Assembly (NCBI GenBank): GCA_001784175.1 | Contig: MFPR01000004.1 | Coordinates: forward strand, 310,001 to 374,000 | Length of the DNA stretch: 64,000 nt | DNA from: Candidatus Lindowbacteria bacterium RIFCSPLOWO2_12_FULL_62_27 | Lineage (GTDB): Bacteria > Lindowbacteria > 2-12-FULL-62-27 | Direction: 5' to 3' | In this document: positions 4,287 to 64,000 of the stretch, piece by piece | Layout of the letters: each line of letters starts with the position of its first letter | Position numbering within the stretch: position 1 is the stretch's first letter | Notes under the pieces: generated by a model | Seen by the model: the letters and a program-made list of their open reading frames with translations, nothing else | Told to the model about the DNA's origin: nothing | Databases searched by the model: none | Position numbers and translations under genes: made by a program

Positions 4287-4288
4287 GG

Positions 4289-4972: not shown

Positions 4973-5231
4973 ACCTGTGCCTCCCGAAAAAAAAGTCCAG
5001 GGTGCCGTAGGAAATCGAGTATTGAACCGCGATGTCCAGGTGGGATTCCCGCGAATGCCACACTGGGCTTCCCTCACCCCCCGCATCTGTTTGGCGAACC
5101 CGAAGGCTCATCGTCAGATGATCGGAAGGGGGCCTGCCGGGCGGCGCCCGACGACGGAATCCCGTCCGATGCTTGTAGGCTCAATGACTGCGAGGACCTG
5201 ACGAGCACCCCAGACGCAATTGTCACCCCCT

Positions 5232-5259
5232 GTTTAACCCAGCGGACGCCGGGCGTCAA
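5232..5259 (-). promoter_or_regulatory. Candidate sigma70-type promoter for the thioredoxin-rarA-ppk2 operon
   Basis: TTGACG (5259-5254), a 16-nt spacer, then TTAAAC (5237-5232), reading toward the thioredoxin-like gene. The stretch 4973-5271 holds no credible gene. The transcript leader would be about 250 nt, which is long. No riboswitch is recognised in it. Confidence 0.35.
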
Positions 5260-5271
5260 GTCCCCGGCGGC

Positions 5272-6591
5272 CTATCTGAAAAACTGGCACACCCGGATGT
5301 CCATGCCGCCCTGAGTGAAGTGGTAGGTCTCCATTTCGGTTCCCCGCATGCATTTGCCAAAGGCCGCCCAAGATTCCTCGTCGGGGCAAAGAATAAAGCC
5401 GAGTAAATTGTGATTTTCCTTTTCAAGTTTAACGGCCAGTTCAAACACTTTTTTTCCGATATTGGAATAAAAAACGCCCGGGGCGGCCCTGTCCTTCAGA
5501 CGGATGCCGTAGGGGGGATTGAGCGGGAGAAAGACATTTCCGAGTTTTTTTTTCATGAAATCCGCAATATCGCCGGTATTCAATTTCAGGAAATTTTCAC
5601 GGAAAACGGATTCTCCCGGTTTGATGAAATCTGAATTGTCGCGATCGCAGGTTTTTTTGAAATTTTCAATGTTTTTCAGCAGGGCGTCGTTGGCCGGCGC
5701 CGAAGGGTCCATGCAAAGAATATTCAAACGATTTTCCGCGGCGAGACGGGAAGCAAGTTTCGAGTTCTCTCTCGCTTTTTTCAACAGAAAAGCGAAATTT
5801 TCCTTTCTGAACAGGGGCATTTTTTGCAGGGCATATTCCCGGTTCAACAGGCAAGGAGCGTGTTGATAATGGTATTCGAGGTATTCAAACACAAACGTTC
5901 CCGTGCCGGAAAACGGGACCCACAACGTGTCGATTGATAAATTCTCCTTATGCCTCCTGGAAAAGTGGAACGCTTTTCGGATGGCGCAAGCGGCGGCGTC
6001 CTCCCGCAAAGGCGCGCTTGCGCTCAGCGCGCCCCGGTATCCTCTTTTGTACAGAGGGGTTCCCGCCAAAGAAATGCTGACGGTGAGTTTGTCCTTATAG
6101 AGCCCGGCATGGAGACATGTGGTCTCCCGGGTATTTTCGCCGCTGACCACTCCGATGCCTCTCGGTTTAAGTATATCCGTCAGAATATCTTTTAACCCGC
6201 TTTCGTGAAAAGCTCCGCTTGCAACGGAGTCCACTTTGATTTTAAGGGACATGGAAGAATCGACATAATAATCCCAGCGGATGGACCGGCACCGCGCCGC
6301 GAAAGCCTCCCGGCCGGGGGAGTTCCCCTCAAACAGAACAAGGCGGAGATCGGAAAGGCAAAGGCTGCGCATCAGCATTTCCGACAGCGCAAAAAAATGA
6401 ATATTCTCAATGCGAATTTCATTTTTGAGAAGGGTGCACTTGCTCTTGAATTTTTGTTCGAACCACAGATGGTTTAAAATACTTTCAATTTCCTCCTGTC
6501 CGATCGTGCCCAGGCCGGCGGGGAAGCAGGCGATCGCGGATTGAGGTTTCCCATAGATATGCCGCTTGATTTGCTTTTCAATATTTTGCAT
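5272..6591 (-). CDS. RlmL-like THUMP/class I rRNA methyltransferase
   Basis: 439 aa from ATG 6591; an in-frame ATG at 6612 is an alternative, and neither has a clear ribosome site. The THUMP region (residues about 1-155) precedes a Rossmann methyltransferase with the catalytic NPPYGIR motif near residue 360 and an SGTGTF glycine motif near 225. Family members methylate guanine N2 of 23S rRNA (RlmL/Trm14 group). Base composition is visibly more AT-rich than both neighbours, with many AAA/TTT codons, which suggests recent acquisition. A 718-aa reading of this frame extends into addB on the other strand; that extension is spurious. Confidence 0.85.
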   Translation of the reverse strand: MQNIEKQIKRHIYGKPQSAIACFPAGLGTIGQEEIESILNHLWFEQKFKSKCTLLKNEIRIENIHFFALSEMLMRSLCLSDLRLVLFEGNSPGREAFAARCRSIRWDYYVDSSMSLKIKVDSVASGAFHESGLKDILTDILKPRGIGVVSGENTRETTCLHAGLYKDKLTVSISLAGTPLYKRGYRGALSASAPLREDAAACAIRKAFHFSRRHKENLSIDTLWVPFSGTGTFVFEYLEYHYQHAPCLLNREYALQKMPLFRKENFAFLLKKARENSKLASRLAAENRLNILCMDPSAPANDALLKNIENFKKTCDRDNSDFIKPGESVFRENFLKLNTGDIADFMKKKLGNVFLPLNPPYGIRLKDRAAPGVFYSNIGKKVFELAVKLEKENHNLLGFILCPDEESWAAFGKCMRGTEMETYHFTQGGMDIRVCQFFR

Positions 6592-9600: not shown

Positions 9601-9741
9601 GTTCTTGAGTCCATCGCCGGCGGCCGGTTCGACGTGACGCCGGAGGACGAAACCCTGTGCGACACCTGTGAATTCAGGCGGGCCTGCCGGGTTCGTGAAG
9701 TGTTGGGAGCGCCGGCGGAGGAAGGCGGTGAGGCCGAATGA
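6652..9741 (+). CDS. addB: AddB-like helicase/nuclease subunit (PD-(D/E)XK)
   Basis: 1029 aa. The C-terminal third is a RecB-family nuclease: IGRIDRLD supplies the acidic residue and IIDYKLSD the D-x-K, followed by LQLPAYAQA. Cysteines at GCPFRGF and at CDTCEFRRAC match the iron-sulfur staple of AddB nucleases. The N-terminal part has no GxxGKT, unlike Bacillus AddB, so motor activity would rest on AddA. The next gene, addA, overlaps by 4 nt (ATGA). The pair processes double-strand breaks for recombination. A TATGAT hexamer lies 15 nt before the ATG. A 9-bp hairpin sits in frame near residue 646. Confidence 0.88.
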   Translation: MGTLTILPTAMSAGDWTRERAADRAVFGYPAVSHSQWVRAVYRAVHPARAWLPDGESLAVVAWVVDEYYAQRPAAPFSGLRHRIGFWRSLQRLLNECRMACLGVEELVGVLQAGGSGGAGADRAGLIGDLYAAYDRRLSELNATDASTAESELAGLIRSHADRIPTLADADEIEVRGIYDIKPATFEWILELARHRPTTVFLPLPKDHPRSIRWLEWTYRKFEYLADEAPTGLTVQSEDLQSGRGLAELLPRLFQPLAQLKEQKIPPLAMKTPLRVLEANDSRAEIVEVARRVRRLCDEGTDPARIAVMFRRPDPYPTAPDTFAAFDVPVEISPDLRDAWHPEPLDREALDLVALAAGGFEREDLAGWLGRTRARLPDPLCDPDLGRILREARILRGPPSAIHRRLKEYADSLGDETARALIRSVDKSLQDALGAASSLADPSRPGPYVKALEAALDALGWFGPESPITDGDAPTLRERLRRLERILEGIDRKWDSSVLYDLLSDALSGGGAGESGGVRLLSILDAAAIEIDHLFIVGLTAGAFPSEPKQEVFLKDHEREEISAAYIKQRRESLGPRLAAHRPFDTAKEERLRENFLFFLCLAQPTGSVTLSYPRLDPQGRPATPSPYLDEIFKQFEDPRALFLPAGVGDAGTWGAGGADPAGAVPMTRPEMEAEAVERLGAETTPVTADDADRIRWIATQIDIERRRERFYLERNRERRKELAFEYTGRLAGARTGFWRKADISVGALEAFAGCPFRGFARTLIGLEKIDRPVEGLSFKDLGTLLHRFLEIFWKELDRIHGKDRGDLTAVLKTARSCAPAAFEAAAREMARLGAEGPFWESQKAALRYLIDSIVDLEEDSLKAGLWPSAIERQVTLELSPDRRARPKQLIGRIDRLDRAADGAVRIIDYKLSDVMFLREKKKKLGMTELQLPAYAQAVAAQDGLAGRTPVALVYVSLRHAAQALEIWSGTVDELKLLFQAGPVLESIAGGRFDVTPEDETLCDTCEFRRACRVREVLGAPAEEGGEAE
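8587..8607 (+). repeat. Hairpin with 9-bp stem inside addB
   Basis: GCCGGCGTC and GACGCCGGC flank a 3-nt loop. It codes for the low-complexity stretch PAGVGDAGTWGAGGADPAG. It looks like an inserted palindrome, but no second copy was seen in the window. Confidence 0.4.
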
Positions 9742-12700
9742 CGAGAGTGCTGAATCCGGAACAGCAGACTGTCCTCGAGTTTCGCAACAGTTTGTGCCTT
9801 TCGGCCGGCGCCGGCAGCGGGAAAACCCGGACACTGGTCGAAAAATATCTGCAGCTTCTGCTGGACGAAGGCCGGCAGCCGCCCGAAATTCTGGCCATCA
9901 CGTTCACCGAAAAGGCGGCCGCCGAGATGCTGGCGCGCATCCGCGAGGCCATTCAAAAACGGATTCACGAGGAAACCGATCCCCAGCGGTGCGGCGATCT
10001 CGAGGACAAGCTCATGAACCTCGGCGCCGGATGGATCTCGACCATCCATTCGTTCGGCGCGCGCCTCCTGCGGGAGCATCCGGCGGAAGCCGGCGTCGAT
10101 CCGGCGTTCGCGCCGCTGCCCGAGCAGGAATCCCAGATCCTCTGGGAGTCGGCGGCGCTGGCGGCCGTGATCGAAATGGCCGACCGCGATCCCGCCGTCG
10201 GGGAACTTGCGCTGCGGCTCGGCCTCCACGGCGGCCGGCGCGGCGCGGGCCTTCTCACGGTCCTGCGCGCGATCAAACTCCAGCTCGACTCCCGCGGCTG
10301 CCGGCCGGAGGATTTCGGCGTGGTGGATTCTGTCGAAGGCCCGACGGCGGCGACACGGAGGTCAGCCGTCCCCGCCCACCGTCCGACAGGGATGTCGGAC
10401 GCTCAGGCGGGGGCGACGCTGATCGAATCTCTGAACAGGCTCTCGGAATTGCCCGGTCCCGGCCCGACCCTGCAGAGGAAACTTCCGGCGTTCCGGCGGC
10501 TCGCGCGCGATCTGGGAGGTGATCCGGGCGGAGCGCCGGTCGCCCCCAGCCGGCTCCTGCGGCTCCTCGCGCGGGCCGGCTGGGACGAGCAGGCGGAACG
10601 GCTCAAGCCGGGCGGGCCGCTGAGAAAGAACGAAAAGGAAATTTTCGCCGCCGTCGAGGCCGCGTCCCGCGATCTGGCCGGGCAGGCCGCCCGGTGGATC
10701 GAGCGCGATCTGGCCGCGACGGTCGTCCGGTTGCTCTCGGCCATGTGGCGGCACGCGGACCGTGAGAAGAGCCGGCGGCGGGCGCTCGATTTTTCCGATC
10801 TTGAAATCAAGACGCTGCATCTGCTCGAAACGCATCCCGAGGTCGTCCGATCGTATCAGGCGCGGTTCAAGCACATCCTCGTCGACGAGTATCAGGACGT
10901 CAATCCCGTTCAAGCCCGGATCGTGCGGGTTTTGGCGGGTGACCGGCCCAACAGCCTGTTTGCGGTGGGCGATCCGAAACAATCGATCTACCGGTTCCGC
11001 GGCGCGGACATCGCGCAGTTCCAGGGATTGTGGCAGGAGATGGAACAGCGGGGCGCCGCGTTTCAGCTCAAGTCCAATTACCGGAGCCATCGGAGGCTGG
11101 TGGAGGCCGTGAACGCCTTTTTCGACCGCCGGATTTTCAAAGGCCGGCCGCCGGTCGAGATGCATCCGGCGCGGACGGAGCCCGCGCCGGCCGCGGGCGC
11201 GTCCCCCGTCGAACGGCCGCGCATCCAGTGGCTCGTTTTTGATTTCGGCGACGCCGGCGCGGCGGGCCGGCGGGAGCTCGAGGCGAAGATTCTCGCGGCC
11301 CGCATCCGGCGGATGGTCGAGGACCGGCTGGCGTACGGCGACGTGGCGCTGCTGTTTCGGGCGACGAGCTCTCTATATTTATATGAAGAGGCGATGCGTG
11401 AAGCCCGGATCCCCTACGAACTCGTCAAATCCGGCACGGCGTTTCGGTCCCAGGAGGCTCTCGACCTGCTCAACGCTCTCACGGTCTTGATCGATCCGTC
11501 GGATACGGTCGGCTGGCTTGGATTTTTGCGCTCGCCGATGGCCGGCCTGTCGGACGATGCCATTCTGTCGTTGGCTGAGACGGGCGACGTGCGGAATTAC
11601 TTTCTGGGCCGTTCGGAGCTTCCCGAACTGTCCGACCGGGACCGCGAGGCGGCCGCACGAACATTGCGGCTGGTCGATCAGGGCCGGAAGATCGAGCGCA
11701 AGATTCGGACGCCGCTGGCGCTCCTCGACTGGATCGTCGCCGAAACCGGATACCTCGCGATCCTGAAGGGCCTGCCGCAGTCCGACGCCCGGCGAAGAAA
11801 TCTCGAGACCCTCCGGTCCGCCGCCGCGCAATACGCGGAACACCGGCCGGACCCCCACGTCGCGTTTCTCGAAGCCGCATGGCGGATGGTCGAACGGAAT
11901 GAACGGGAAAGCGGCATGGACGTGCCGGCCCGGGACGCCGTCAAGCTCATGACGATCCATCAGGCCAAGGGCCTTGAATTTCCGGTCGTGATCCTGCCGG
12001 ACCTTCTGCGGTCCGAATCCGTTCGCACGCCCGATTTTTGCGTCGTGCCGGACAGCGCGCGCCTGACGCTCGCCGCCCGCGTGAAACTGGCGGGGCTGGC
12101 CGAAAAATTTCCGACCCCGCGATGGCGCGCGGCCAAGGAGGAGTTGGTCCTGAGCGAATCGGAGGAACAGAAGCGCCTGCTCTACGTCGCCATGACGCGC
12201 GCCCAGGACCTGCTCGTCCTGCCGGGGCCCGCCACACCCGCGCCGGGCGGCCGGACCGTGTGGGAGATGCTGTACGAGTTTTTGGCGGAGGAGGGGGAAC
12301 ACGTCGAGCGAGTCACGGCGAGTCTTCCGGGCGGGCCCGCCGCGCGCGAAGAAGACACGCCGCTCCTCGACCGGCTCTCCCGCGTGGAACTCCGCCCGGC
12401 GCCGCCGCCCGCGCTCATTCGCGTGCGGACGGTCCGACAAGCCACGGCGATTAAGGAGATCGTCGAAGGCGCGGCCGCGCCGCCCTCGATCTCGCGTACC
12501 CCGGACCCCTACGCCGTGGCACTGGGCATTCTGGCGCACGAAGCGCTGGAAGACGCGGATTTTTTCCTCGATGCGGACCGCCAGACCCGGCGGCTGGACG
12601 AATACTTGCGGGACCGGCAGCCGTGGCTGTTTTTGCCGGCCAAACGCATGGATCAACTTCAAAAAAATATCGCGCGGTTTTTCCAATCGCCCCTCATGGA

Positions 12701-13139
12701 ACGCCTGCGAACGGAACGGCCGACCCTCTACAAGGAATACCCGTTCACGTTCCGGCTTCGGGGCGCGGCGACACGGAGGTCAGCCGTCCCCGCCCACCGT
12801 CCGACAGGGATGTCGGACGCTCAGGCGGGGGCGGAACAGGAAGTCTGGATCCGAGGGAAAATCGACCTCCTGATTCTGGGAAAGGCCGGACCCGAAATTT
12901 ACGACTACAAATACACCGACCCGACGCCGACGTTCGGCCCCTACGAGGGCCAGCTTCTGGCCTATGCCCTCGCGGCCTGCGACGCCTTCGACGCGCCGGC
13001 CGTCACGGTCGGCCTGCAGTTTCTCTCAGGCGCCCAGCCGATCCTCGCGAAAGAAATCAGCCGGGAAGAGGCCGGGCGCGGGATCGAATCCCTGCTCCGC
13101 GTTACTCCTCCTCGTCCCGCTCGCTCAGAAACGTCTTGA
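9738..13139 (+). CDS. addA: AddA-like UvrD/REP helicase-nuclease
   Basis: 1133 aa. Superfamily 1 helicase motifs occur in order: I SAGAGSGKTRTL (residue 23 on), Ia TFTEKAAAEM, II LVDEYQDVN, III GDPKQSIYRFRGAD, V TIHQAKGLEFPVV, VI LLYVAMTRAQD. A C-terminal RecB-type nuclease follows (HEALED, RGKIDLLI, IYDYKYTD). It is the motor and second nuclease of the AddAB break-processing complex. It overlaps addB by 4 nt. Two copies of a 68-bp palindromic element are inserted in frame at residues 204-226 and 1010-1032, the second right next to the nuclease active site. Its last 38 nt overlap the convergent amidase gene. Confidence 0.93.
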   Translation: MTRVLNPEQQTVLEFRNSLCLSAGAGSGKTRTLVEKYLQLLLDEGRQPPEILAITFTEKAAAEMLARIREAIQKRIHEETDPQRCGDLEDKLMNLGAGWISTIHSFGARLLREHPAEAGVDPAFAPLPEQESQILWESAALAAVIEMADRDPAVGELALRLGLHGGRRGAGLLTVLRAIKLQLDSRGCRPEDFGVVDSVEGPTAATRRSAVPAHRPTGMSDAQAGATLIESLNRLSELPGPGPTLQRKLPAFRRLARDLGGDPGGAPVAPSRLLRLLARAGWDEQAERLKPGGPLRKNEKEIFAAVEAASRDLAGQAARWIERDLAATVVRLLSAMWRHADREKSRRRALDFSDLEIKTLHLLETHPEVVRSYQARFKHILVDEYQDVNPVQARIVRVLAGDRPNSLFAVGDPKQSIYRFRGADIAQFQGLWQEMEQRGAAFQLKSNYRSHRRLVEAVNAFFDRRIFKGRPPVEMHPARTEPAPAAGASPVERPRIQWLVFDFGDAGAAGRRELEAKILAARIRRMVEDRLAYGDVALLFRATSSLYLYEEAMREARIPYELVKSGTAFRSQEALDLLNALTVLIDPSDTVGWLGFLRSPMAGLSDDAILSLAETGDVRNYFLGRSELPELSDRDREAAARTLRLVDQGRKIERKIRTPLALLDWIVAETGYLAILKGLPQSDARRRNLETLRSAAAQYAEHRPDPHVAFLEAAWRMVERNERESGMDVPARDAVKLMTIHQAKGLEFPVVILPDLLRSESVRTPDFCVVPDSARLTLAARVKLAGLAEKFPTPRWRAAKEELVLSESEEQKRLLYVAMTRAQDLLVLPGPATPAPGGRTVWEMLYEFLAEEGEHVERVTASLPGGPAAREEDTPLLDRLSRVELRPAPPPALIRVRTVRQATAIKEIVEGAAAPPSISRTPDPYAVALGILAHEALEDADFFLDADRQTRRLDEYLRDRQPWLFLPAKRMDQLQKNIARFFQSPLMERLRTERPTLYKEYPFTFRLRGAATRRSAVPAHRPTGMSDAQAGAEQEVWIRGKIDLLILGKAGPEIYDYKYTDPTPTFGPYEGQLLAYALAACDAFDAPAVTVGLQFLSGAQPILAKEISREEAGRGIESLLRVTPPRPARSETS
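10348..10415 (+). repeat. 68-bp palindromic in-frame element, copy 1 (in addA)
   Basis: Identical over 68 bp to copy 2. Its core hairpin is GTCCGACA-GGGA-TGTCGGAC, inside an outer stem of CCCCGCC with GGCGGGG. It is read as ATRRSAVPAHRPTGMSDAQA (then GA) within AddA, between helicase motifs Ia and II. Confidence 0.92.
12766..12833 (+). repeat. 68-bp palindromic in-frame element, copy 2 (in addA)
   Basis: Perfect 68/68 match to copy 1 and in the same reading frame of the same gene. It lies just before the PD-(D/E)XK core residues of the AddA nuclease domain. Confidence 0.92.
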
Positions 13140-14718
13140 TCCCGTCCGCGATCGCCCATGCGGCGCGGTCCCGGAAATCCGGGTCGAGGATAAGCGCCTC
13201 CTCGGGCGGCCACATGAGGTAGGCGCATTCGATCAGGATGGCGGGCATGTAGGACTGGCGGGTGACGTGGAAGTTCGCGTAGTGGAGTCCGTCGTCCCTC
13301 AGCGGGATGGAGGCTCTCATCGCGGCGTGGACCGCTTCGGCCAGAGGCTGGCTGAAGGGCTGGAAGTAATAGACGCTGAATCCATTTTTTTCAAATGGAT
13401 TGTCCGCCGGCGGAAGCGCGTTGGCATGGATGGAGACGAACAGGTCCGCCGACGCCTGACGCGCGCGCAGGACGCGGTCCGGCAGCGCCAGCGTTTCGCC
13501 GTCCTGCCGGGTCATCACCACATCGGCGCCGTTGGAAACCAGAACATCCCGAAGCGACACCGCCATCCGCCAGTTGGCCGCATGCTCGGTCGTTCCCATC
13601 GGCCCTGTGGCGCCGAGCGGGGGATGGCCGGGATCGAGGCAGACGCGGACGCCCGCGAGATAGTTCGGCGGCGGGGGGGCGGGCGGCGGCACGGAAGTCC
13701 GCCGTCCCCGCCCACCGTCCGACATGGATGTCGGACGCTCAGGCGGGGGCGACGCCGGCGGATCCCTGAGTTCCAGAATCAACCGGAGCCCTTCATACCG
13801 CACATCGTATCCCCACAGCGGCCGGCGAAGTTCCAAGTCCAACTGATAGACGCCCTCCATCGGTTGGCTCCAGCGCGCCAGGCGAATCCATGGATCATCC
13901 GAGGCGTAATGGAGCCAGTCCGTGTTTGAGATGCCGCCATAGATTTTCAGCGACATCGACCGGCCGTCCGGCGCGACCGTCACGCGATAGGGGAGAAGTT
14001 CCTCGAGGCCGGTTTGAAGAAGGGTCGACCGGGTGTTGCGGCGAACTGTCCAGCCGTTGACGAAACTCTGGGGCGACGGCGTCTGTTTGGGCAGCAATTT
14101 GACCGTATGCGCTTCTACCCAGACGGACTCAAGCGCCGACAATCGGACATGCAGGGACTTGTCGATCTGGCCGACGACCGTCACGAGGACGTTTTTCTGC
14201 AATGGAAGTTCAAACCCGGCCTGCTCGTCGCCGCGGTCCGGTCCGGACCGGAGATACGCCGTGTCGGCGGCGATCCGGCCGATCCGGTGCGGTTTCCAGA
14301 CGCGTTCCTCCGGAGGTTTGTGAACCGCCCAGTCGCCCACATTTCCGGCAGGTTTTGCGGCGTTGCCCGGCGCTCCGTTGACGGTGACCTTGCGCGCCAC
14401 CTGCGTTTCGGTCCCGTCCTCCAGCCGGGCGGCGGCGACGATGGTCATCTTGCCGGCCGTGAGCGGAATGACGGCCAGCCACCCGCCCAGACTCGAACGG
14501 ACGATGGGCGAATCAAGGCCGTGGACGGTCACACGAGCATCGGGCGGATGAACCGACCCGAAGACAAACGTCCGCTCGAGGGCCGGCAACGACATTTTTT
14601 CCGGAGGATGGACAATCTGGATTCGGAGCTGGGGCGAGTCCCCTGCCGCAGCCCCAACGGCCACGGCCGCGGGCGCCGCCACCACGCCCAGCAGCCACCC
14701 CCATACCGCGTTGCGCAA
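13102..14718 (-). CDS. N-acetylmuramoyl-L-alanine amidase (Amidase_3), secreted
   Basis: 538 aa. The N-terminal hydrophobic segment (WGWLLGVVAAPAAVAVGAAA) is a signal peptide. The C-terminal 200 residues are a zinc amidase: VCLDPGHPP, then TTEHAAN, SIHANAL and ILIECAYL supply the metal-binding histidines and catalytic glutamates. It cleaves the lactyl-peptide bond of peptidoglycan in the periplasm. The middle part looks like SH3/AMIN-type beta domains. A Pro/Ser-rich linker before the catalytic domain (residues 323-345) is copy 3 of the palindromic element. The 3' end overlaps convergent addA by 38 nt. Confidence 0.92.
   Translation of the reverse strand: MRNAVWGWLLGVVAAPAAVAVGAAAGDSPQLRIQIVHPPEKMSLPALERTFVFGSVHPPDARVTVHGLDSPIVRSSLGGWLAVIPLTAGKMTIVAAARLEDGTETQVARKVTVNGAPGNAAKPAGNVGDWAVHKPPEERVWKPHRIGRIAADTAYLRSGPDRGDEQAGFELPLQKNVLVTVVGQIDKSLHVRLSALESVWVEAHTVKLLPKQTPSPQSFVNGWTVRRNTRSTLLQTGLEELLPYRVTVAPDGRSMSLKIYGGISNTDWLHYASDDPWIRLARWSQPMEGVYQLDLELRRPLWGYDVRYEGLRLILELRDPPASPPPERPTSMSDGGRGRRTSVPPPAPPPPNYLAGVRVCLDPGHPPLGATGPMGTTEHAANWRMAVSLRDVLVSNGADVVMTRQDGETLALPDRVLRARQASADLFVSIHANALPPADNPFEKNGFSVYYFQPFSQPLAEAVHAAMRASIPLRDDGLHYANFHVTRQSYMPAILIECAYLMWPPEEALILDPDFRDRAAWAIADGIKTFLSERDEEE
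13684..13751 (+). repeat. 68-bp palindromic element, copy 3 (in the amidase gene, opposite coding orientation)
   Basis: About 93% identical to copies 1 and 2; the core loop is TGGA instead of GGGA. The gene is on the minus strand, so the complementary strand of the element is translated, giving PERPTSMSDGGRGRRTSV, still without a stop. Confidence 0.9.
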
Positions 14719-14825
14719 AGACCTTCCCCCTTCTCGTGGCGGCTGCCGCCACTTCTACAATCGGTCGTTACCTTATGAGAAGCCTATTGGAAACGATCCC
14801 AACCTCTCGAATCGGAATCCGAAAC

Positions 14826-15086
14826 CTATTTCAGGTGCTTGCTGACGAGCTTGGTCATCTCGAACATGTCGACCCGGCTCTTGCCCAAGACTGCCTTCAT
14901 CGCGGCGTCCGCGTTGATCATCCGCCGCTGCTTGGCGTCCTGCAGTTTGTGTTTCTTGATGTACTTCCACAAATTCTTGGTGATTTCCGTGCGTGGAGCC
15001 GCCTTGCTTCCGACGACCGCCGACAGCGCCGCATCCGGCTGAACCGGCTTCATGAACGCCGCGCTCGGCTTCCTCTTTCCGGCCAT
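14826..15086 (-). CDS. SWIB/MDM2 domain protein
   Basis: 86 aa, consisting of a Lys-rich N-terminus and one SWIB domain (ITKNLWKYIKKHKLQDAKQRRMI, INADAAMKAVLGKSRVDMFEMTKLVSKHL). SWIB domains occur in eukaryotic chromatin remodellers and as small stand-alone basic proteins in Chlamydiae and scattered environmental bacteria. In Chlamydia a SWIB is fused to topoisomerase I. A role in DNA binding or nucleoid structure is likely but unproven. It is a single gene with about 100 nt free on each side, next to the initiator tRNA. Confidence 0.92.
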   Translation of the reverse strand: MAGKRKPSAAFMKPVQPDAALSAVVGSKAAPRTEITKNLWKYIKKHKLQDAKQRRMINADAAMKAVLGKSRVDMFEMTKLVSKHLK

Positions 15087-15144
15087 GTAAACAGCCTCCC
15101 GAACATAAGATTTCCCCGCGCCATCTGGCGCGAGTCAAAAATCG

Positions 15145-15218
<74 letters not shown>

Positions 15219-15353
15219 TCAACGCTACGCTTTATACGTTACGAGGGGGAAATGTCAAGCGGAAACTCGAGAAATGCGGCGGAACACAGCGGATGGACCC
15301 CTTGATTTCCTTGATTCTTTCCGTGTCGTGTGTTTCGATCAGTAACGATACCC

Positions 15354-17288
15354 ATGAGACGAAACAGAAGAGCAGCATCGAGTGCGGCGTTCCTGCTGAT
15401 TTTTTTATGCGGTTCAGTCGTCGCGTCCGACCGCGCCGAAGTCGGCCGGATCCTCAAACTTGTCCGGACGGTGGCGGAAGGCGGTTCCAGCAGGGGCGGG
15501 ATTCGGCCGGCGCTGAGTCCGGCCCTTCTCGATAATCCGCGGCTGGCATTGCCGCACTTGAATGACACGGATTTTCTCCAGCGATTGAAGTGGTATGCGC
15601 CCTTTGCACGGACACGCGAGGATCAAGCCGCAACGGCGATCGGGCTGTGGATCGCAACTCATGCCGAAACCATTGCGGCCGCGCCGGATCAGAAGTCCGA
15701 CGGCGATCGCATCACGCTCGTATGGCCCGGAAGCCTCCTCGTGCTGGAACGGACACCGGACGGCCTGCGGATCGCTGGGACGGCCGAAACGGCCGCGACG
15801 CCACCTCTTGTCCGGCCGCCCCCGGCCGACGGCCCGGCCCGGCGCCAGGCCACGATCGTGTTCACCAACGACATCCACGGGTATCTCTTGCCGTATCCGG
15901 ATCCTTGGTCGAAAGCGGAGACGCGGCCGATCGTGGGGGGTGTCACCTCCATCGCCACGTACGTGCGGCGCTGCCGGGCCATCGCCGCCGCGCAGGACGT
16001 GCCGCTCTTTCTGTTCGACGCCGGCGATCTCTATCAAGGAACGCCCGAGGGGACCCTGACCAAGGGGTCCGTCATGGTCCCGGTCATGAACTCGCTTTCG
16101 TACGACGCCATCGCCATCGGCAATCACGAATACGACCACGGCCGCCAAAACGCCGAGCGGCTCGTCGCGGCCCTCAAGGCGCCGGTCCTCGGCGCAAACG
16201 TGTTCGACTCGACGACGCGAAAACTCGAAAAGGGCCTGAGGCGGCGCCTCGTGCTGGACCGCGGCGGCGTCCGGGTGGGCCTGACGGGAATTCTGACGAC
16301 CCACATGCGAGGCCTGACGTTTGCCAAAAATATTCTGAACCTCGACTTTCGGCCGCACATCCCGACGCTGGCCGGCATCCTGCCCGATCTGCACGCCGCG
16401 AATCCGGATCTGATGATCCTTCTTTCTCACACGGGCTTCCAGGAGGACACAGCGCTGGCGGATGCGGTTCCCGGGATCGACATCATCCTGGGCGGGCATT
16501 CGCATACGGAAGTCGAAACGGCGTGGATCGCCAAGAACAGGACCGTTGTCGTCCAGACGCAGGGCAAGGCGTCGCACATCGGCCGGATGGACGTCCTGAT
16601 CCTGCCGGGCGGGGGCGTCGACACGTTTGTGTGGCAACTGGTTCCGCTCACGGTCAAGGCGTTTCCGCCGGACCGGCGGATCGGCCGGGTGATCGGGGAC
16701 GCGACCCGCGGGGTCACCGCGGAGATGGGCCGTGTCATCGGCCGAAGCGACACGGATATCCCGTACGCCTATCGCAAAGAATCGGCGATGGGCCGGCTTA
16801 CGACCGACCTCCTGAGAGCGTGGGCCGGCGCGGACATCGCCATCCTCGCCGGAGGCGGGATGCGCGCCGGATTCATTCCGGGTCCCATCGCCGTCCGCGA
16901 TTGTTTTCAGGTTTTTCCTTTCGGCAATCCGCTCGCGGTCGCCGATGTGCGGGGCGCTGCGCTCCTGCGCGTGCTGGAACACGGCGTTTCGACGGACCGC
17001 GGGCGCATTCAGGTCTCCGGCGTCACCATCCTCGCCGACACCTCGCTCCCGCGCGGCCGGCGGATCGTGGAGGTCCGGGTGGCCGACGTTCCGATCGACA
17101 CGGATCGAACGTACCGTGTCGTGACGGACGGATTTCTTGCGCAGGGCGGCAGCGGATTTTTTGCGAAGGAGCCCATCGACTGGGACATCCATACGGAGCA
17201 AACGCCCTTTGATCTTCTGCGCGACCACGTCGCGCGGGTCGGCGACGTCCGTGCGCCGGCGGCGGAACGTATCCGGTACCGGCAGTGA
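15354..17288 (+). CDS. 5'-nucleotidase/metallophosphatase (UshA family), periplasmic
   Basis: 644 aa from ATG 15354, giving a typical signal peptide (MRRNRRAASSAAFLLIFLCG); a GTG 24 nt upstream is also open. Metallophosphatase motifs are in order: TNDIHGYL, FDAGDLYQG, GNHEYDHG, LLSHTGF, GGHSHTE. The 5'-nucleotidase C-terminal domain follows, with LAGGGMRAGF and the substrate-binding QVFPFGNPL. It hydrolyses nucleotides or related phosphoesters in the periplasm. About 130 residues between the signal peptide and the phosphatase are not recognised. It stands alone, followed by an independent promoter. Confidence 0.92.
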   Translation: MRRNRRAASSAAFLLIFLCGSVVASDRAEVGRILKLVRTVAEGGSSRGGIRPALSPALLDNPRLALPHLNDTDFLQRLKWYAPFARTREDQAATAIGLWIATHAETIAAAPDQKSDGDRITLVWPGSLLVLERTPDGLRIAGTAETAATPPLVRPPPADGPARRQATIVFTNDIHGYLLPYPDPWSKAETRPIVGGVTSIATYVRRCRAIAAAQDVPLFLFDAGDLYQGTPEGTLTKGSVMVPVMNSLSYDAIAIGNHEYDHGRQNAERLVAALKAPVLGANVFDSTTRKLEKGLRRRLVLDRGGVRVGLTGILTTHMRGLTFAKNILNLDFRPHIPTLAGILPDLHAANPDLMILLSHTGFQEDTALADAVPGIDIILGGHSHTEVETAWIAKNRTVVVQTQGKASHIGRMDVLILPGGGVDTFVWQLVPLTVKAFPPDRRIGRVIGDATRGVTAEMGRVIGRSDTDIPYAYRKESAMGRLTTDLLRAWAGADIAILAGGGMRAGFIPGPIAVRDCFQVFPFGNPLAVADVRGAALLRVLEHGVSTDRGRIQVSGVTILADTSLPRGRRIVEVRVADVPIDTDRTYRVVTDGFLAQGGSGFFAKEPIDWDIHTEQTPFDLLRDHVARVGDVRAPAAERIRYRQ

Positions 17289-17303
17289 AATACGCCCGGT
17301 CAA

Positions 17304-17332
17304 TTGAACGCCGGGCGGAAAACTGCTAGAGT
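17304..17332 (+). promoter_or_regulatory. Promoter giving a probably leaderless mRNA
   Basis: TTGAAC, 17-nt spacer, TAGAGT, with the ATG of the next gene only 8 nt after the -10 box. Transcription should start within 1-2 nt of the ATG, and there is no room for a Shine-Dalgarno site. A 7-bp inverted repeat (CGCCCGG/CCGGGCG, 17293-17317) overlaps the -35 box and could be an operator or the end of the previous transcript. Confidence 0.55.
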
Positions 17333-17340
17333 CACGTCCA

Positions 17341-18444
17341 ATGTGGAAAACCACTGAAGGCAGCACGGGGCGTCTGATCCAGTTTTGTCTCGGATATTTT
17401 ATTTTCTATGTAATCACGGGCGTGACCGTCAAATATTTCACGGGCCCGGCGGCCGGCGGGTTTCCAGGCATGCAGGACGCCGAGTTCCTCGTCTACAGCA
17501 CCTTCGGCGGGTCCATCATCTGCCTTTTGGTGGTCTTCGCCCGAGGGTGGTACCGGACGCAGACGGAGCCTCGGATGGAATTCGCCGGCGTCCGATTTCC
17601 AAGCGCGTATCTCTACATTTTTCCCTCCGGGTTCTGCACGGCCGTCATCATCCCGACGACGACCATGATGTACATGCTGCCGATTTCGGTCATGGTGGCG
17701 ATGGTGATCATGCGCGCGAGCGTGATCGTCATCGGCCGCATCGTCGACGGCATCCAGATCCGGCAGGGGATCCTGAAGAAGAAGGTCTACCAGGAGGAAA
17801 ACACGGCAGCGATCTTCGCCATCACCGCGGCGGGGATACAGATCTTCTTCGTCAAGCCCGGCGACTTCGACTTCCTCCACGCGCCCGTCGCCATGACGAT
17901 CCTCGGGTCCTACCTCACCGCCTACATGTTTCGCATCTACATCATGAACTACTTCAAAAATACCCGGCCGAAAGGGGCGCCGCAGAACAACGAGTGGTTC
18001 TTCGCGATCGAGCAGATCGCAGCCAGCGTGTCGATGGCCCTGATCGCCCTGCCCGTGTTTTTCGCGCCCGAACTGTTCGGCCGCACGCACGCGCAGATTG
18101 AGCTGTTTCGAGGCGCAATCTTCCAACCCCTGCCCGGCTGGCCGTCCGCAGTTCTGGCCGGCACGGCCTTCGGCGGCGTCGCGTTTTTTTCGGTGTTCAT
18201 CTTCATGTTCAAAGGCCGGACCGCCACCTTCGCCAACCTCGTCAACCGGCTCACCTCGCTGGTGGCCGGCACCGCCGCGACCCTCCTCTTCGCGCTGATG
18301 TACGGCGGCAAGCTTCCCAAGATCCAGGACTGGATATCGCTTCTGTACATTGTGATCGCCGTCGTCTACCTCGCGATCGCGGAACGGCGGCGCGTCGCGG
18401 AACTTGCGGCAGCCCAGGAACTGAATTCCGGCGCCCCGAAGTGA
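17341..18444 (+). CDS. Polytopic membrane protein of unknown function
   Basis: 367 aa with about 10 hydrophobic segments spread over the whole length (for example LIQFCLGYFIFYVITGV, IFPSGFCTAVIIPTTTMMYM, AVLAGTAFGGVAFFSVFIFM). The even spacing and small size recall drug/metabolite (EamA-type) transporters, but no diagnostic motif was recognised. The ATG lies 8 nt after a -10 box. The stop overlaps the next gene as GTGA, so the membrane protein and the P-loop protein downstream are probably made together. Confidence 0.8.
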   Translation: MWKTTEGSTGRLIQFCLGYFIFYVITGVTVKYFTGPAAGGFPGMQDAEFLVYSTFGGSIICLLVVFARGWYRTQTEPRMEFAGVRFPSAYLYIFPSGFCTAVIIPTTTMMYMLPISVMVAMVIMRASVIVIGRIVDGIQIRQGILKKKVYQEENTAAIFAITAAGIQIFFVKPGDFDFLHAPVAMTILGSYLTAYMFRIYIMNYFKNTRPKGAPQNNEWFFAIEQIAASVSMALIALPVFFAPELFGRTHAQIELFRGAIFQPLPGWPSAVLAGTAFGGVAFFSVFIFMFKGRTATFANLVNRLTSLVAGTAATLLFALMYGGKLPKIQDWISLLYIVIAVVYLAIAERRRVAELAAAQELNSGAPK

Positions 18445-58951: not shown

Positions 58952-59008
58952 GGGGGGCAGACTATCATACCGGCCGGCGGAAAGTCAGCAGGTGGAGACG
59001 GGCGCAGA

Positions 59009-59045
59009 CCCTCTTTCATCCCCCTTGCAAAGGGGGGAAAGAGGG
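59009..59045. repeat. Perfect-stem hairpin repeat upstream of cimA
   Basis: CCCTCTTTC pairs with GAAAGAGGG, and inside it CCCCCTT pairs with AAGGGGG. Similar GC-rich palindromes are scattered between genes in many bacteria. It may end transcripts or be a REP-type unit. Confidence 0.6.
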
Positions 59046-59187
59046 GGGTGACCCGTTTTGATCGACCGGTTACCGCAGGTGGAATTCGGTCGGTCAACAG
59101 CGGAGAACATAGGCCACGAATAAAACCTTTACCGTATGGTGGATATTTGTGACATTCGAACCCATTCGTGTTATATCTTTTCCGCCT

Positions 59188-59349
59188 TCTACCGACTTTC
59201 AATTACCCACATTCCCCCTCTCCCGCCTCTGGCGGGAGAGGGTCGGGGTGAGGGTGGCCGCACGGCGCGTCGATACCCCCCTCACCCCTACCCTCTCCCC
59301 CCGCTTCGCGTGGGGAGAGGGGGTTTGTGGGTAATTGAAAGTTCTACCG
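59188..59349. mobile_element. MITE-like inverted-repeat element with 7-bp target duplication
   Basis: A 148-bp element (59195-59342) is bounded by perfect 16-bp terminal inverted repeats, ACTTTCAATTACCCAC and its complement. Direct repeats TCTACCG lie directly outside both ends. The interior is also self-complementary (GGGGTGAGGG with CCCTCACCCC, plus two local hairpins rich in CTCTCCC). The interior resembles CCCTCTCCC-type dispersed palindromes common in bacteria. It has no coding capacity. It lies 35 nt before the structured RNA of the Cas9-like locus. Confidence 0.7.
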
Positions 59350-59384
59350 ACCGCTCACACGCAGGTGAAAAAAACAGGTGACAC

Positions 59385-59592
59385 CGCCGGTTGCATGATT
59401 TATGATGCGGCTTCAAGGGTGAAAGAAGCCCAGACGCCGCCCAACAAGCGGCGTCATGTACGGCCCCGACTAGTCCTCGCCGTGCGTAACCACAGCGCCG
59501 GAGAATAGGTGTGGTCGGGCCCGCAGGCGGGTGTCGGCAACCCGCAAAGGGCAAGGGAGCGGCGCGCCGATAAGCCGAACGGAAGCGCCGCA
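59385..59592 (+). ncRNA. Candidate structured guide RNA (omega-RNA/HEARO-like) of the Cas9-like nuclease
   Basis: A gene-free stretch ending 10 nt before the nuclease ATG holds a chain of hairpins. They are GGCTTC/GAAGCC (59409-59430), GACGCCGC/GCGGCGTC with loop CCAACAA (59433-59455), a long arm closed by GGCCCCGAC and GTCGGGCC (59462-59521) with inner CACA/TGTG, GCGGGT/ACCCGC (59527-59545), and GCGGCGC/GCGCCGC (59559-59591). A structured RNA immediately 5' of a RuvC-HNH gene is the arrangement of IscB omega-RNAs, which carry the guide at their 5' end. Family membership is inferred from position and folding only; no sequence match was tested. Confidence 0.65.
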
Positions 59593-59602
59593 AATTGCAC
59601 TT

Positions 59603-62600
59603 ATGGCTACAGAATTGGAACAACGATTGAATGAGTTTTTGGATTCTCTCCGCCTCGGAATAGATTTCGGCGAAGATTATGGCGGCATTGCATTGGTGCA
59701 GGCCAATCGCGTCCTTCACGCCGAAACGTTCGTCGATTTTCATCAGGCGACACTGAAGGATCGACGGAGAAATCGCCGGGGTCGCCGCACCCGACATGCC
59801 AGGAAAATGCGCCTCGCGCGCCTTCGATCATGGATCCTACGCCAAAAACTTCCGGGTGGACAACGCCTCCCGGACCCGTACGGCGTCATGCATTGGCCTT
59901 TCAAAACGAAAAAGGGGCATACGATAAAAACAGGTCTTGCCTCGCGTCAGGACGGCAAGCGGACCATTATCCAGAAATGTAAGATCGGAACTGCCACGCC
60001 CGAGGAGTTTGTATGCTCTCTGACGCTTCTTTTTCAAAAACGCGGATTTGTGTGGGAGGGAAGCGATTTATGCGAACTGAGCGACCAAGAGCTCGCCGAA
60101 GAACTCATGACTGTTCGAATTACCGAAGCAGTCGCCGCGGCGATAAAAGAGGAAATTGAACGCAGAAAAAAAGAGCCGGAAGATAATAAAGAAGGGGAAA
60201 TCGAGAATCTGGAAACGGTGCTTTGCGATGCCGTCAAACGCGCGCGATCGCCACGAACTCCCGAACACCGGAGTATCGTCGAATCGGATCTCAAGGATAT
60301 CGTCGACGGGTGGACGCGCAAAAATTGTCCGCAGATGACGGACATGTGGAAAAAAGAATTATCATGTCTGTTGAACAAGCATGTTCGGCCGGCCAGATTT
60401 GAAAACCGCATTGTCGCCGGATGCTCGTGGTGCGGAAAAATGGTACCACGCAAATCCAAGGTTCGGGAGCTTGCATACAAAGTCGTCGTCAAAAATATTC
60501 GCGTTGAAGATTTCACCTCCCGCCAACCTCTCACTGCGCAGGAGGCCGAATATTTTTCTCAACTGTGGGTCGATAAAGAGGCGAAGCCGCCAGCGCGGAC
60601 GGCGATCGAGAATAAACTCAAAAAACTGAAAGCTAGTCCGAAAATGGCCAACCAATTGTACGAATTGCTTGCGCCATCCGAACCCAAGGGCCATACGAAC
60701 CTCTGTCAACAACATCTCGAGATGGCCGCACGCGGCGCGTTTATGTGCAACAGACACCATGCCATCTGTGAGAATAATAATGGCGACCATCAGACAATCG
60801 ATTCCGTCAAAGAAGGCCGCAAACGCGCCGGGCCTCGAAATCCCTGCCGGGAAGATCGTGATCGCCGAATGATTCGACGACTCGAACAAATCCTTTTTGA
60901 AACGCCGGGCAAGCCCGGCAAGCCCAGTCACAGCATACCACGATTGATTACCATAGAATTTCCAAAACCGAATACTGCTCAAACGGCCGGATGCCCCCAC
61001 TGCAAGGAGAAGTTATCGCTCGATGCTCGCGTCAGATGGAAAATGGCGCGTCCGATGAAACTTGAAGCTTCAAATGATTCCACTCCATTTTTTTGCCCCT
61101 CCTGCGCCGCCGGGATCAAAATCACTTTGTACAAAAAAATGCGTATTAAGGAAAAGGAGATTGTGCAAAAATATTCTCCCAAGGATACGGATGTGCTTGT
61201 GAGGAAAACCGCCGCAGGCGGGTTGAAAAAGTTGAAATATGACATGTATCTCAAGGAAACGGACGGAACATGCGTCTATTGCGGAACATCCATTGGGTCA
61301 GGGCAGATTGATCACATCTTTCCGCAGTCTCGAGGAGGGCCCAATATCGATTACAATCTCATCAGCTGTTGTCGGACATGCAATGGAAACCTGAAAAAAA
61401 ATAAAAGTCCGTGGGAGTGGTTCGGGAACATCGACCAACGCTGGAGAGAGTTTGAAGACCGGGTCAAAAAACTGCCGGCACCTCAACGAAAAAAGGCGAT
61501 TTTGCTTTCAAGAGAATCGGCGTATCCGGAGAATCCAACGGCGCTCGCCCGGGTTGGCGCCCGCACAAAAGAGTTTATCGGACGCATTAAGCAAATGCTT
61601 CTGGCCAACGGTGTGAAGGAAAATGAGATCGCAGATAATTACGAAAAAGACAAAATCGTTATCCAGACCATTGACGGCTGGATGACCAGCCGACTTCGCG
61701 GCTGCTGGAGGACTTTCCCGGACGGTACGGCAAATTTTCCACCCAAAAACGATGCCGATAAAAGAAACCACGCCCAAGATGCCGTATTGATTGCCGCTTG
61801 CCCGCCACACACATGGCGAGAAAGGATATTTACGTGGAAACCGGAAAATCCGTATTTTTCGGTATTACAGAAAATCGCGCCGCGTTGGAAAGACCATCAG
61901 GCGACGATGAAAATCTTGGGACGCTATTTTCCCCGATGGCATAATCAGAATTCTGATATTCAATTCGTCCATCAGCATAAAACTCAAAACGGCACCTCCT
62001 ACACAATGAGAGACACGGTCGAAAGCATCGATGTCGGCACCGACAAAAAGGGGGGCAGCATCGAAAGGATTTACTCCAAAAGTTTCCGGGATTTTTTTAG
62101 CCGGACCTTTAAGTCCCTCGGAATCAAGATGGCAATGAATGAAATCCCGAAACTCAAGAGTCAATGGTTGAATGAAAGGCGGGCTGCTTGGATGAAGAAG
62201 AATCCGGCAACGCCTGTGCCGAACCAGCGGGAACGTGCGTGGGAAGCATCATTTCCAAGACGTCTACAATTCGATATGGGCTATGGCGAAGACGTTGCGG
62301 AGGTCAACCCCAAGAATGGCCCGTCGAGATTTGTTCGCGCCCAGCCTGTCAACGATCGGATTGAAGTTTGGACGAACGACGTCAGACAGGCGCAGATTCG
62401 TACTGTGAAGAATCGGATTCTGTTTCGGCACATCCAGGACAATTCACCGCAGGGACGGACTCTTGAAAGAATTTTCCGGAGAAACGACATGATTCAGTTG
62501 GATGCGGTTCAAAAAAGGGGGAGAAAAGGAATAACTGGAAAAAGTTACGAGGCCGGTGAATATATGGTCGTTAAAATCGAGAAAGGCGGAAAATTTACGG

Positions 62601-62734
62601 CCGTTCCGGCGCACAGGGGGAAAGGCAGAGAAAATCAGCGCCAAGTTTCGCAGCGTGAAATCGCCAAACTGTGCGGGGTTTCGCTTTCTCCGAAAAGGCG
62701 GAAGCCATCCCGCTCAACGAGCGAAAGCGGTTGA
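59603..62734 (+). CDS. Cas9-like RuvC/HNH RNA-guided nuclease, stand-alone
   Basis: 1043 aa from ATG 59603 (24 more codons are open upstream but run into the RNA). RuvC-I LGIDFGED with Asp21; Arg-rich bridge helix 50-79; about 370 residues in the place of Cas9 REC lobes, with CSWC near 290; RuvC-II LITIEFPKP with Glu452; a four-Cys zinc ribbon (CPHC, CPSC); HNH with CVYCG, IDHIFPQSRGG (His571), Asn585 and CRTCNGN; RuvC-III NHAQDAVLI with His723 and Asp726; and a C-terminal 310 residues with FRRNDMIQL and GEYMVVKIE like the Cas9 WED/PI part. All catalytic residues are intact. Only 16 residues precede RuvC-I, too few for an IscB PLMP domain. No cas genes or array are present. GC content is lower than in flanking genes. 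Confidence 0.9.
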   Translation: MATELEQRLNEFLDSLRLGIDFGEDYGGIALVQANRVLHAETFVDFHQATLKDRRRNRRGRRTRHARKMRLARLRSWILRQKLPGGQRLPDPYGVMHWPFKTKKGHTIKTGLASRQDGKRTIIQKCKIGTATPEEFVCSLTLLFQKRGFVWEGSDLCELSDQELAEELMTVRITEAVAAAIKEEIERRKKEPEDNKEGEIENLETVLCDAVKRARSPRTPEHRSIVESDLKDIVDGWTRKNCPQMTDMWKKELSCLLNKHVRPARFENRIVAGCSWCGKMVPRKSKVRELAYKVVVKNIRVEDFTSRQPLTAQEAEYFSQLWVDKEAKPPARTAIENKLKKLKASPKMANQLYELLAPSEPKGHTNLCQQHLEMAARGAFMCNRHHAICENNNGDHQTIDSVKEGRKRAGPRNPCREDRDRRMIRRLEQILFETPGKPGKPSHSIPRLITIEFPKPNTAQTAGCPHCKEKLSLDARVRWKMARPMKLEASNDSTPFFCPSCAAGIKITLYKKMRIKEKEIVQKYSPKDTDVLVRKTAAGGLKKLKYDMYLKETDGTCVYCGTSIGSGQIDHIFPQSRGGPNIDYNLISCCRTCNGNLKKNKSPWEWFGNIDQRWREFEDRVKKLPAPQRKKAILLSRESAYPENPTALARVGARTKEFIGRIKQMLLANGVKENEIADNYEKDKIVIQTIDGWMTSRLRGCWRTFPDGTANFPPKNDADKRNHAQDAVLIAACPPHTWRERIFTWKPENPYFSVLQKIAPRWKDHQATMKILGRYFPRWHNQNSDIQFVHQHKTQNGTSYTMRDTVESIDVGTDKKGGSIERIYSKSFRDFFSRTFKSLGIKMAMNEIPKLKSQWLNERRAAWMKKNPATPVPNQRERAWEASFPRRLQFDMGYGEDVAEVNPKNGPSRFVRAQPVNDRIEVWTNDVRQAQIRTVKNRILFRHIQDNSPQGRTLERIFRRNDMIQLDAVQKRGRKGITGKSYEAGEYMVVKIEKGGKFTAVPAHRGKGRENQRQVSQREIAKLCGVSLSPKRRKPSRSTSESG

Positions 62735-62907: not shown

Positions 62908-63144
62908 ATGCCGACGGTCTTAAGAAAGGGGCCGTATCGTTTTTTCTTTTTTGCCGGTGATCGCGGCGAGCCGCCGCACGTTCACGTTGAGCGTGACAAC
63001 AAGGTCGCCAAGTTTTGGCTGGAACCGGTTCGGTTGTGCGGGAGCGGGGGATTCTCACGGGCTGAAATTCGCCGGATACTCAAGTTGGTGTTCGCTTATG
63101 CGAGTGAATTGAAGGAGGCGTGGCATGCGTACTTCAACGGTTAG
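62908..63144 (+). CDS. DUF4160 protein
   Basis: 78 aa with GGAGG 6 nt upstream. It shows the DUF4160 pattern: GPYRFFFFAGDRGEPPHVHVER near the front and AEIRRILKLVFAYASELKEAWHAYF at the end. DUF4160 genes are commonly paired with DUF2442 genes, as here, and the pair is suspected to be a toxin-antitoxin-like module; function is unproven. It overlaps the next gene by 20 nt. The 173 nt before it, after the Cas9-like gene, hold no gene. Confidence 0.88.
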   Translation: MPTVLRKGPYRFFFFAGDRGEPPHVHVERDNKVAKFWLEPVRLCGSGGFSRAEIRRILKLVFAYASELKEAWHAYFNG

Positions 63145-63454
63145 GACGGAAACGCCGCTTGCGGAAGACGTGACGCTGACGGCCGACACGATCCATGTCG
63201 ATTTGAGCGACGGCAGAACCATCTCCGCGCCGCTGGCGTGGTTTCCGAGGCTTCTAAACGCGTCGCAAAAGGAAAGAGACAACTGGCGGCTGATCGGCAA
63301 GGGACAGGGCCTGCATTGGGAAGACATCGACGAGGATATCAGCGTTGGGAATCTCCTGATGGGTCAGGCATCCGGCGAAAGTCAGCAGTCTTTCGAGAAG
63401 TGGCTCTCGGCAAGGAAACCCCGCCGTTCAACCTCACACGGACAGCGACGCTGA
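63125..63454 (+). CDS. DUF2442 protein
   Basis: 109 aa with AAGGAGG 6 nt upstream, inside the end of the DUF4160 gene. Family features are VTLTADTIHVDLSDGRTISAPL, WFPRLLNASQKERDNWRLI and GLHWEDIDEDISVGNLLMG. Partner of the DUF4160 protein; members of DUF2442 resemble small DNA-binding proteins. The C-terminal 25 residues are basic and probably disordered. Confidence 0.88.
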   Translation: MRTSTVRTETPLAEDVTLTADTIHVDLSDGRTISAPLAWFPRLLNASQKERDNWRLIGKGQGLHWEDIDEDISVGNLLMGQASGESQQSFEKWLSARKPRRSTSHGQRR

Positions 63455-63845: not shown

Positions 63846-64000
63846 TTGGTAAAGACTGTTTTTATCGCGCACGACTATTATGAAATAGGGGGCCGAAAAA
63901 GGAAGTACCGGCGTCTTATATCAACAGCCCTCAAACATACCGGCTTTCGTCCCACCTATGCCGATCACGCCATCCAAAACGTTTCAATATTGAAGGAAAT
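63846..64000 (+). CDS. Truncated gene, possible TIR-like or related effector (N-terminus only)
   Basis: 51 codons from TTG 63846 with GGCGG about 6 nt upstream; it runs off the window. The start VKTVFIAHDYYEIGGRKRKY, then RRLISTALKHTGFRPTYADH, has the strand-loop-helix-strand order of TIR-like nucleotide-binding domains. This is a weak resemblance and the rest is needed for any assignment. Confidence 0.5.
   Translation, partial: MVKTVFIAHDYYEIGGRKRKYRRLISTALKHTGFRPTYADHAIQNVSILKE

What the first reader, a model, noticed from the sequence alone, without database searches (positions are those of the whole stretch)
59385..62734. Cas9-sized RuvC/HNH nuclease without CRISPR, preceded by a structured RNA
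The sequence shows a full split-RuvC, bridge helix and HNH protein of 1043 aa with intact catalytic residues, and a roughly 200-nt hairpin-rich stretch ending 10 nt before its ATG. No cas1, cas2, array, direct repeats or anti-repeat were seen in the window. IscB loci have this RNA-then-nuclease layout, but IscB is typically 400-500 aa with an N-terminal PLMP domain. This protein has only 16 residues before RuvC-I and a REC-sized insertion of about 370 aa. It may be an omega-RNA-guided Cas9 relative, an intermediate between IscB and Cas9, or a Cas9 using an array elsewhere.
Basis: partly seen in the sequence, partly recalled or inferred. Interest (0 to 1): 0.95.

Follow-up and report, generated by a model that had tools for sequence, protein, structure and literature searches.

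The report
Ordinary type II-D CRISPR-Cas9d system
The Cas9-like gene that seemed to lack a CRISPR array belongs to a complete type II-D CRISPR-Cas system: its cas1, cas2, cas4 and array lie just past the window's end, and the structured RNA in front of it is almost certainly its tracrRNA.

Summary
The protein and the structured RNA are real, but "without CRISPR" is an effect of the window's edge. The 1043-aa protein scores 452 bits on NCBI's Cas9d model (cut-off 375) and groups with solved Cas9d proteins, apart from other Cas9s and IscB. In the host genome, cas1 begins 309 bases past the window end, followed by cas2, cas4 and a four-repeat array. The last 14 bases of the 37-nt repeat recur exactly at 59412-59425; that 14-mer occurs five times in the 4.39-Mb genome, in the four repeats and here. 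A promoter-like site would start transcription at that match, and every repeat carries a promoter-like site on the minus strand, so the RNA would pair with the crRNA over 14 bp: a tracrRNA, not an omega RNA. Cas9d, tracrRNA, cas1-cas2-cas4 and array are the published make-up of subtype II-D. One side result is worth keeping: a related genome shares the adaptation genes (89-93% identical), repeat, tracr promoter and anti-repeat, but has a Cas9d only 29% identical with an unalignable tracr scaffold, as if the effector had been swapped with a breakpoint inside the tracrRNA.

The parts
59369..59431 (+). 63-nt block (tracrRNA promoter, anti-repeat and first scaffold bases) shared with the related locus L012
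   Evidence: 95% DNA identity to L012:9397-9459, with no alignable DNA on either side until the wHTH gene
59378..59406 (+). predicted tracrRNA promoter GTGACA-N17-TATGAT; predicted start of transcription about 59412
   Evidence: the only sigma-70-like site found in 58952-59700 (0.4 expected from shuffles); identical in L012. Prediction only
59412..59425 (+). tracrRNA anti-repeat UUCAAGGGUGAAAG
   Evidence: 14 of 14 with the 3' end of the CRISPR repeat; five copies in the genome = 4 repeats + this one; pairs with the minus-strand repeat at -22.7 kcal/mol
59426..59592 (+). tracrRNA scaffold (hairpins); the 3' end is not known, between about 59556 and 59600
   Evidence: fold z = -3.23 for 59412-59602; a GCCC...GGGC stem encloses several hairpins in the crRNA:tracrRNA co-fold
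59603..62734 (+). cas9d, 1043 aa, intact RuvC and HNH catalytic residues, zinc-ribbon motifs
   Evidence: NF049971 CRISPR_Cas9d 452.3 bits, cut-off 375; residues and motifs; tree
62908..63144 (+). DUF4160 gene between cas9d and cas1
   Evidence: PF13711 63.3 bits
63125..63454 (+). DUF2442 gene
   Evidence: PF10387 72 bits; 72% identical to the copy in L012
63550..63834 (+). 94-aa protein, probably winged-helix, no Pfam family
   Evidence: 86% identical in L012; no family found; 'winged helix' is my reading of the sequence
63846..64000 (+). start of a CAP12/Pycsar-TIR-like gene, cut by the window end (ends at window-equivalent 64292). Past it: cas1 64309-65487, cas2 65492-65827, cas4 65824-66414, array 66516-66769 (in L010, subtract 55999)
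   Evidence: PF10137 26.1 bits, cut-off 24.7; Cas1, Cas2 and Cas4 families; array

Best explanation
It is a complete type II-D CRISPR-Cas locus read only up to its middle. Order: tracrRNA, cas9d, small accessory genes, cas1, cas2, cas4, CRISPR array. The structured RNA at about 59412-59592 is the tracrRNA. It starts with a 14-nt anti-repeat and continues into a folded scaffold. The array is read on the minus strand from a promoter inside each repeat, giving spacer-CUUUCACCCUUGAA... RNAs that pair with the anti-repeat. The duplex can be trimmed by RNase III, which the genome encodes. Cas9d holds the duplex and cuts DNA matching the spacer next to a PAM, with RuvC and HNH each cutting one strand. 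Shown here: the genes, array, repeat:anti-repeat match, promoter-like sites, intact catalytic residues. Inferred from known type II biology: transcription, processing, PAM use, cleavage, defence.
For: NCBIfam Cas9d above its curated cut-off; generic Cas9 (80.6 of 100) and IscB (56.4 of 175) below theirs. Tree: window with solved Cas9d, SH-aLRT 97; all four Cas9d rows together, 98, in the tree without IscB. PDB search: best hits are chains including 8zq9 (Cas9d) and 9lgi (type II-D Cas9), E 1e-18 to 1e-21; the best non-II-D Cas9 4e-6. cas1, cas2, cas4 and array. Repeat 14-mer in the genome only in the 4 repeats and in the RNA; 1 of 3000 shuffles of the intergenic region reached a 14-nt match. 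Promoter 59378-59406 places the start at the anti-repeat. Minus-strand promoter in all four repeats and in both intact repeats of L012, as in type II-C arrays read toward the variable end (PMC5052741, PMC10309648). Same layout, repeat and anti-repeat in a second genus. Published II-D make-up: PMC12669027, PMC9755519.
Against: No RNA data; the array is short (3 spacers) and no spacer seed matched a viral contig, so the PAM and activity are unknown. PMC11706934 says II-D systems lack cas1, cas2 and cas4 and span about 600-970 aa, but PMC12669027 and PMC9755519 report adaptation genes and sizes up to about 1050 aa.
Confidence: 0.95

Rival explanations
1. An omega-RNA-guided, IscB-like system: the RNA at 59385-59592 holds its own guide and the nearby array is unrelated.
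For: The layout RNA-then-nuclease and the deep-branching protein are those expected for IscB; PF14239 RRXRR matches just above its cut-off, but PMC9755519 reports that family in Cas9d as well.
Against: The predicted start of transcription leaves no room for a 5' guide; the RNA begins with the array's anti-repeat. NF040563 IscB 56 bits against a cut-off of 175; no HEARO match; no IscB gene in the genome at E <= 1e-40; 16 residues before RuvC-I leave no room for a PLMP domain; IscB is separated from all Cas9 and Cas9d rows with support 100.
Confidence: 0.02
2. The array is read on the plus strand, so the RNA shares a same-sense motif with the repeat and is not an anti-repeat; some other tracrRNA serves the system.
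For: In L012 the degenerate repeat lies at the end far from cas4, which puts the leader on the cas4 side; in many arrays transcription runs from the leader.
Against: Promoter-like sites sit on the minus strand of every intact repeat, and type II-C arrays are read from repeat promoters toward the variable end, which fits the leader being near cas4. The 5' part of the repeat has no match in the RNA that would serve as an anti-repeat in the other sense.
Confidence: 0.03
3. A decayed or inactive system.
For: Only three spacers, none traced to a virus.
Against: Intact catalytic residues, all four repeats identical, and spacers different from those of the related locus although the adaptation genes are about 90% identical, so acquisition went on after they parted.
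Confidence: 0.1

Closest known systems
Subtype II-D CRISPR-Cas (Cas9d; PMC12669027, PMC9755519)
   Same: Cas9d effector, tracrRNA next to cas9, array, cas1-cas2-cas4 module; zinc ribbons in REC, beside RuvC-II and in HNH
   Different: At 1043 aa it is at the upper end of the published range (about 600-1050 aa); repeat-embedded promoters as known from II-C; an accessory wHTH plus TIR-like pair lies between cas9d and cas1
Cas9d MG34-1 (747 aa; PMC11706934) and related solved chains such as PDB 8zq9 and 9k32 (NbaCas9)
   Same: closest solved relatives; 39% identity over 232 aligned columns for 9k32; shared RPxRFxNRI..CxxCG ribbon in REC
   Different: about 300 aa longer; this genome also has cas1, cas2 and cas4, which PMC11706934 says II-D lacks
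IscB / HEARO with omega RNA
   Same: RuvC and HNH nuclease with a structured RNA just upstream
   Different: fails the IscB model cut-off, has no PLMP domain, no HEARO RNA match, and has a CRISPR array with a matching anti-repeat
Type II-C Cas9 of Neisseria meningitidis and Flavobacterium
   Same: promoters inside repeats, crRNA:tracrRNA guide
   Different: effector outside the II-C clade; has cas4; Cas1 scores far lower on the type II Cas1 model (73 bits) than on type I-G, I-C and I-D models (153-169)

Membership tests
Subtype II-D / Cas9d | effector groups with Cas9d in sequence models and tree | tested here: met
   NF049971 452.3 bits, cut-off 375; clade with PDB Cas9d, SH-aLRT 97-98
Subtype II-D / Cas9d | adaptation module cas1, cas2, cas4 | tested here: met
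   PF01867 234.8 bits, PF09827 55.4, TIGR00372 96.0, contiguous with the locus
Subtype II-D / Cas9d | Cas1 inside the II-D branch of the Cas1 tree | not tested
   no reference set of II-D Cas1 at hand; the Cas1 is not of the usual type II kind (73 bits on TIGR03639, cut-off 120)
Subtype II-D / Cas9d | CRISPR array next to the effector | tested here: met
   four identical 37-nt repeats with 34-37-nt spacers, about 3.8 kb after cas9d
Subtype II-D / Cas9d | tracrRNA with an anti-repeat | tested here: met
   59412-59425 pairs with the repeat over 14 bp; promoter in place. Transcription itself not testable here
Subtype II-D / Cas9d | zinc ribbons in REC and near RuvC-II, zinc finger CX(2,4)CX(27,31)CX(2,4)[C/H] in HNH | tested here: met
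   C274/C277 (REC); C464/C467 and C498/C501 (by RuvC-II); C557/C560-X29-C590/C593 (HNH) (definition in PMC9755519)
IscB / OMEGA | IscB model above cut-off | tested here: not met
   NF040563 56.4 bits, cut-off 175
IscB / OMEGA | HEARO / omega RNA upstream | tested here: not met
   no RF02033 match at E <= 10 in 58960-59700
IscB / OMEGA | N-terminal PLMP domain | tested here: not met
   only 16 residues before RuvC-I; the RRXRR match starts at profile position 48
IscB / OMEGA | no CRISPR array or anti-repeat; guide encoded in the RNA | tested here: not met
   array and anti-repeat found; predicted start leaves no guide segment
Type II-C Cas9 | TIGR01865 Cas9 model above cut-off, II-C clade | tested here: not met
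   80.6 bits, cut-off 100; outside the clade of 14 other Cas9s

The most novel reading that the evidence does not exclude
Two related groundwater bacteria carry the same II-D locus (about 88% DNA identity over accessory genes, cas1-cas2-cas4 and array, identical repeat), but the 4.1-kb stretch from just behind the anti-repeat to the end of cas9d has been exchanged for an unrelated Cas9d and tracrRNA scaffold. The tracrRNA would thus be a natural chimera: promoter and anti-repeat stay with the array, the scaffold travels with Cas9.
Probability: 0.7. Interest if true: 0.4.

Novelty: new member of a known kind. Interest (0 to 1): 0.2.

Why it matters
It removes a false candidate for a CRISPR-free, Cas9-sized omega system. 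It adds a complete II-D locus, with adaptation genes, from a poorly sampled bacterial phylum, and a pair of loci that suggests how Cas9 and its scaffold may be exchanged without breaking the match to the array. Such pairs could show which parts of a tracrRNA belong to the array and which to Cas9.

Tried and rejected
Omega RNA (rejected: anti-repeat, no HEARO match). The mir-like Rfam matches at 59203-59335 are far below their gathering scores and fall on a palindromic, purine/pyrimidine-rich intergenic stretch; ignored. Viral relatives of the protein: none. Protospacers: 20-nt PAM-side stretches of all three spacers, no exact match in viral contigs. The AlphaFold model from 16 sequences had mean pLDDT 56 and pTM 0.38; its Foldseek hits are all Cas9s, but TM-scores of 0.1-0.25 carry no weight. 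The only genome-contig scan found one relative, which is the contig already held as L012. The distant Cas9d hits G189 (L044/L017) and G146 are a Cas9 outside the Cas9d clade with an array and cas1-cas2, and a fragment cut by a contig end.

Full report
What is there. The ORF at 59603-62734 (+) encodes 1043 aa with all RuvC and HNH catalytic residues (D21, E452, D570/H571, N594, H723/D726). Upstream, 59412-59602 folds at -88.6 kcal/mol, below all 200 dinucleotide shuffles (z = -3.23).

The missing CRISPR parts are just outside the window. The window is bases 310001-374000 of a 507,730-base contig in a 4.39-Mb genome. A Cas1 search found a gene 309 bases past the window's end. The fetched DNA (L010) shows cas1 (8310-9488), cas2 (9493-9828), cas4 (9825-10415) and four copies of ATTGTAGTCCCGCTCAAAAAAAATTCAAGGGTGAAAG with three different spacers (10517-10770); family models confirm the three genes.

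The structured RNA is the tracrRNA. The last 14 bases of the repeat, TTCAAGGGTGAAAG, recur exactly at 59412-59425. In the whole genome the 14-mer occurs five times, all on one strand: the four repeats and this place. In 3000 shuffles of the intergenic region one reached a 14-nt match. The single promoter-like site in the region, GTGACA-N17-TATGAT at 59378-59406, would start transcription at the anti-repeat. On the minus strand each repeat holds TTGAAT-N16-TACAAT, a promoter-like site that would drive crRNAs of the form spacer-CUUUCACCCUUGAA (also in L012). This arrangement is known from type II-C arrays, which are read from repeat promoters toward the variable end (PMC5052741, PMC10309648). 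It also agrees with the position of the degenerate repeat in L012. The co-fold has a perfect 14-bp duplex (-22.7 kcal/mol) followed by a closing stem and hairpins. The genome encodes RNase III. Promoters and transcripts are predictions; no RNA data were available.

Family. The protein passes NCBI's Cas9d model (452 bits, cut-off 375) and fails generic Cas9 and IscB. Its best solved relatives include Cas9d (8zq9), type II-D Cas9 (9lgi) and NbaCas9 (9k32). In trees it joins 8zq9 and 9k32 with SH-aLRT 97 when IscB is included, and all four Cas9d rows form one group (98) in the tree without IscB. Branches are long, the PDB rows are partial, and the trees are quick ones. With IscB included, L012's place relative to the other Cas9d is not resolved. 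Zinc ribbons lie in REC, near RuvC-II and in HNH as described for Cas9d (PMC9755519). The 2025 classification gives II-D a Cas9d, tracrRNA and cas1-cas2-cas4 (PMC12669027), which is this locus. PMC11706934 states that II-D lacks adaptation genes; this locus, like those in PMC12669027, has them.

A side result. G001, another genus of the same family, has the same locus (L012, = JACQOF010000085.1, a groundwater MAG). Protein identities are cas1 91.8%, cas2 92.8%, cas4 88.8%, TIR-like 86.5% and Cas9d 28.7%. For comparison a housekeeping protein, ValS, is 75% identical, so the module probably moved between lineages. At DNA level the loci share a 63-nt block (promoter and anti-repeat, 59369-59431), then nothing alignable for 4.1 kb (scaffold and cas9d, plus the DUF4160/DUF2442 genes in the window's locus), then about 88% to the end of the array. 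In the tree with IscB the window's Cas9d is nearer to the solved Cas9d proteins than to L012's, which favours replacement over fast divergence in place. Replacement of Cas9 in an otherwise conserved locus has a precedent in type II-C of Flavobacterium (PMC10309648). The breakpoint inside the tracrRNA is my inference from two loci.

Verdict. A complete, ordinary type II-D system, cut by the window's edge. New member of a known kind.

Noticed in passing
L011 (G000:C6:42000-61999), 9460-17700: A second CRISPR system in the same genome: a 569-aa Cas4/Cas1 fusion (670 bits on cas4g_cas1g), an unusually long 1541-aa Cas12b (960 bits) and a 9-repeat array.
   Followed up: partly
window 63550-64292 (past the end) and L012:12662-13409: A 94-aa unnamed protein and a CAP12/Pycsar-TIR-like protein sit between cas9d and cas1 in both loci (86% identical); possibly an accessory defence pair carried with the II-D locus.
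   Followed up: partly
window 62908-63454: DUF4160 and DUF2442 genes overlap each other after cas9d; in L012 the DUF2442 gene lies in another place, after the TIR-like gene.
   Followed up: no
G001:C122 (L013) 1178-5874: The related genome also has a separate type II-C locus (Cas9 1001 aa, 685 bits on TIGR01865) with cas1, cas2 and its own array.
   Followed up: no
window 59203-59335 and 58999-59055: Palindromic CCCTCTCCC-rich stem-loop elements in the intergenic region; a copy of the second (83% identical) lies right after the CRISPR array (L010:10792-10837).
   Followed up: no
window 4990-5219 (-): 6S RNA by Rfam (58.2 bits, gathering score 46.4).
   Followed up: no
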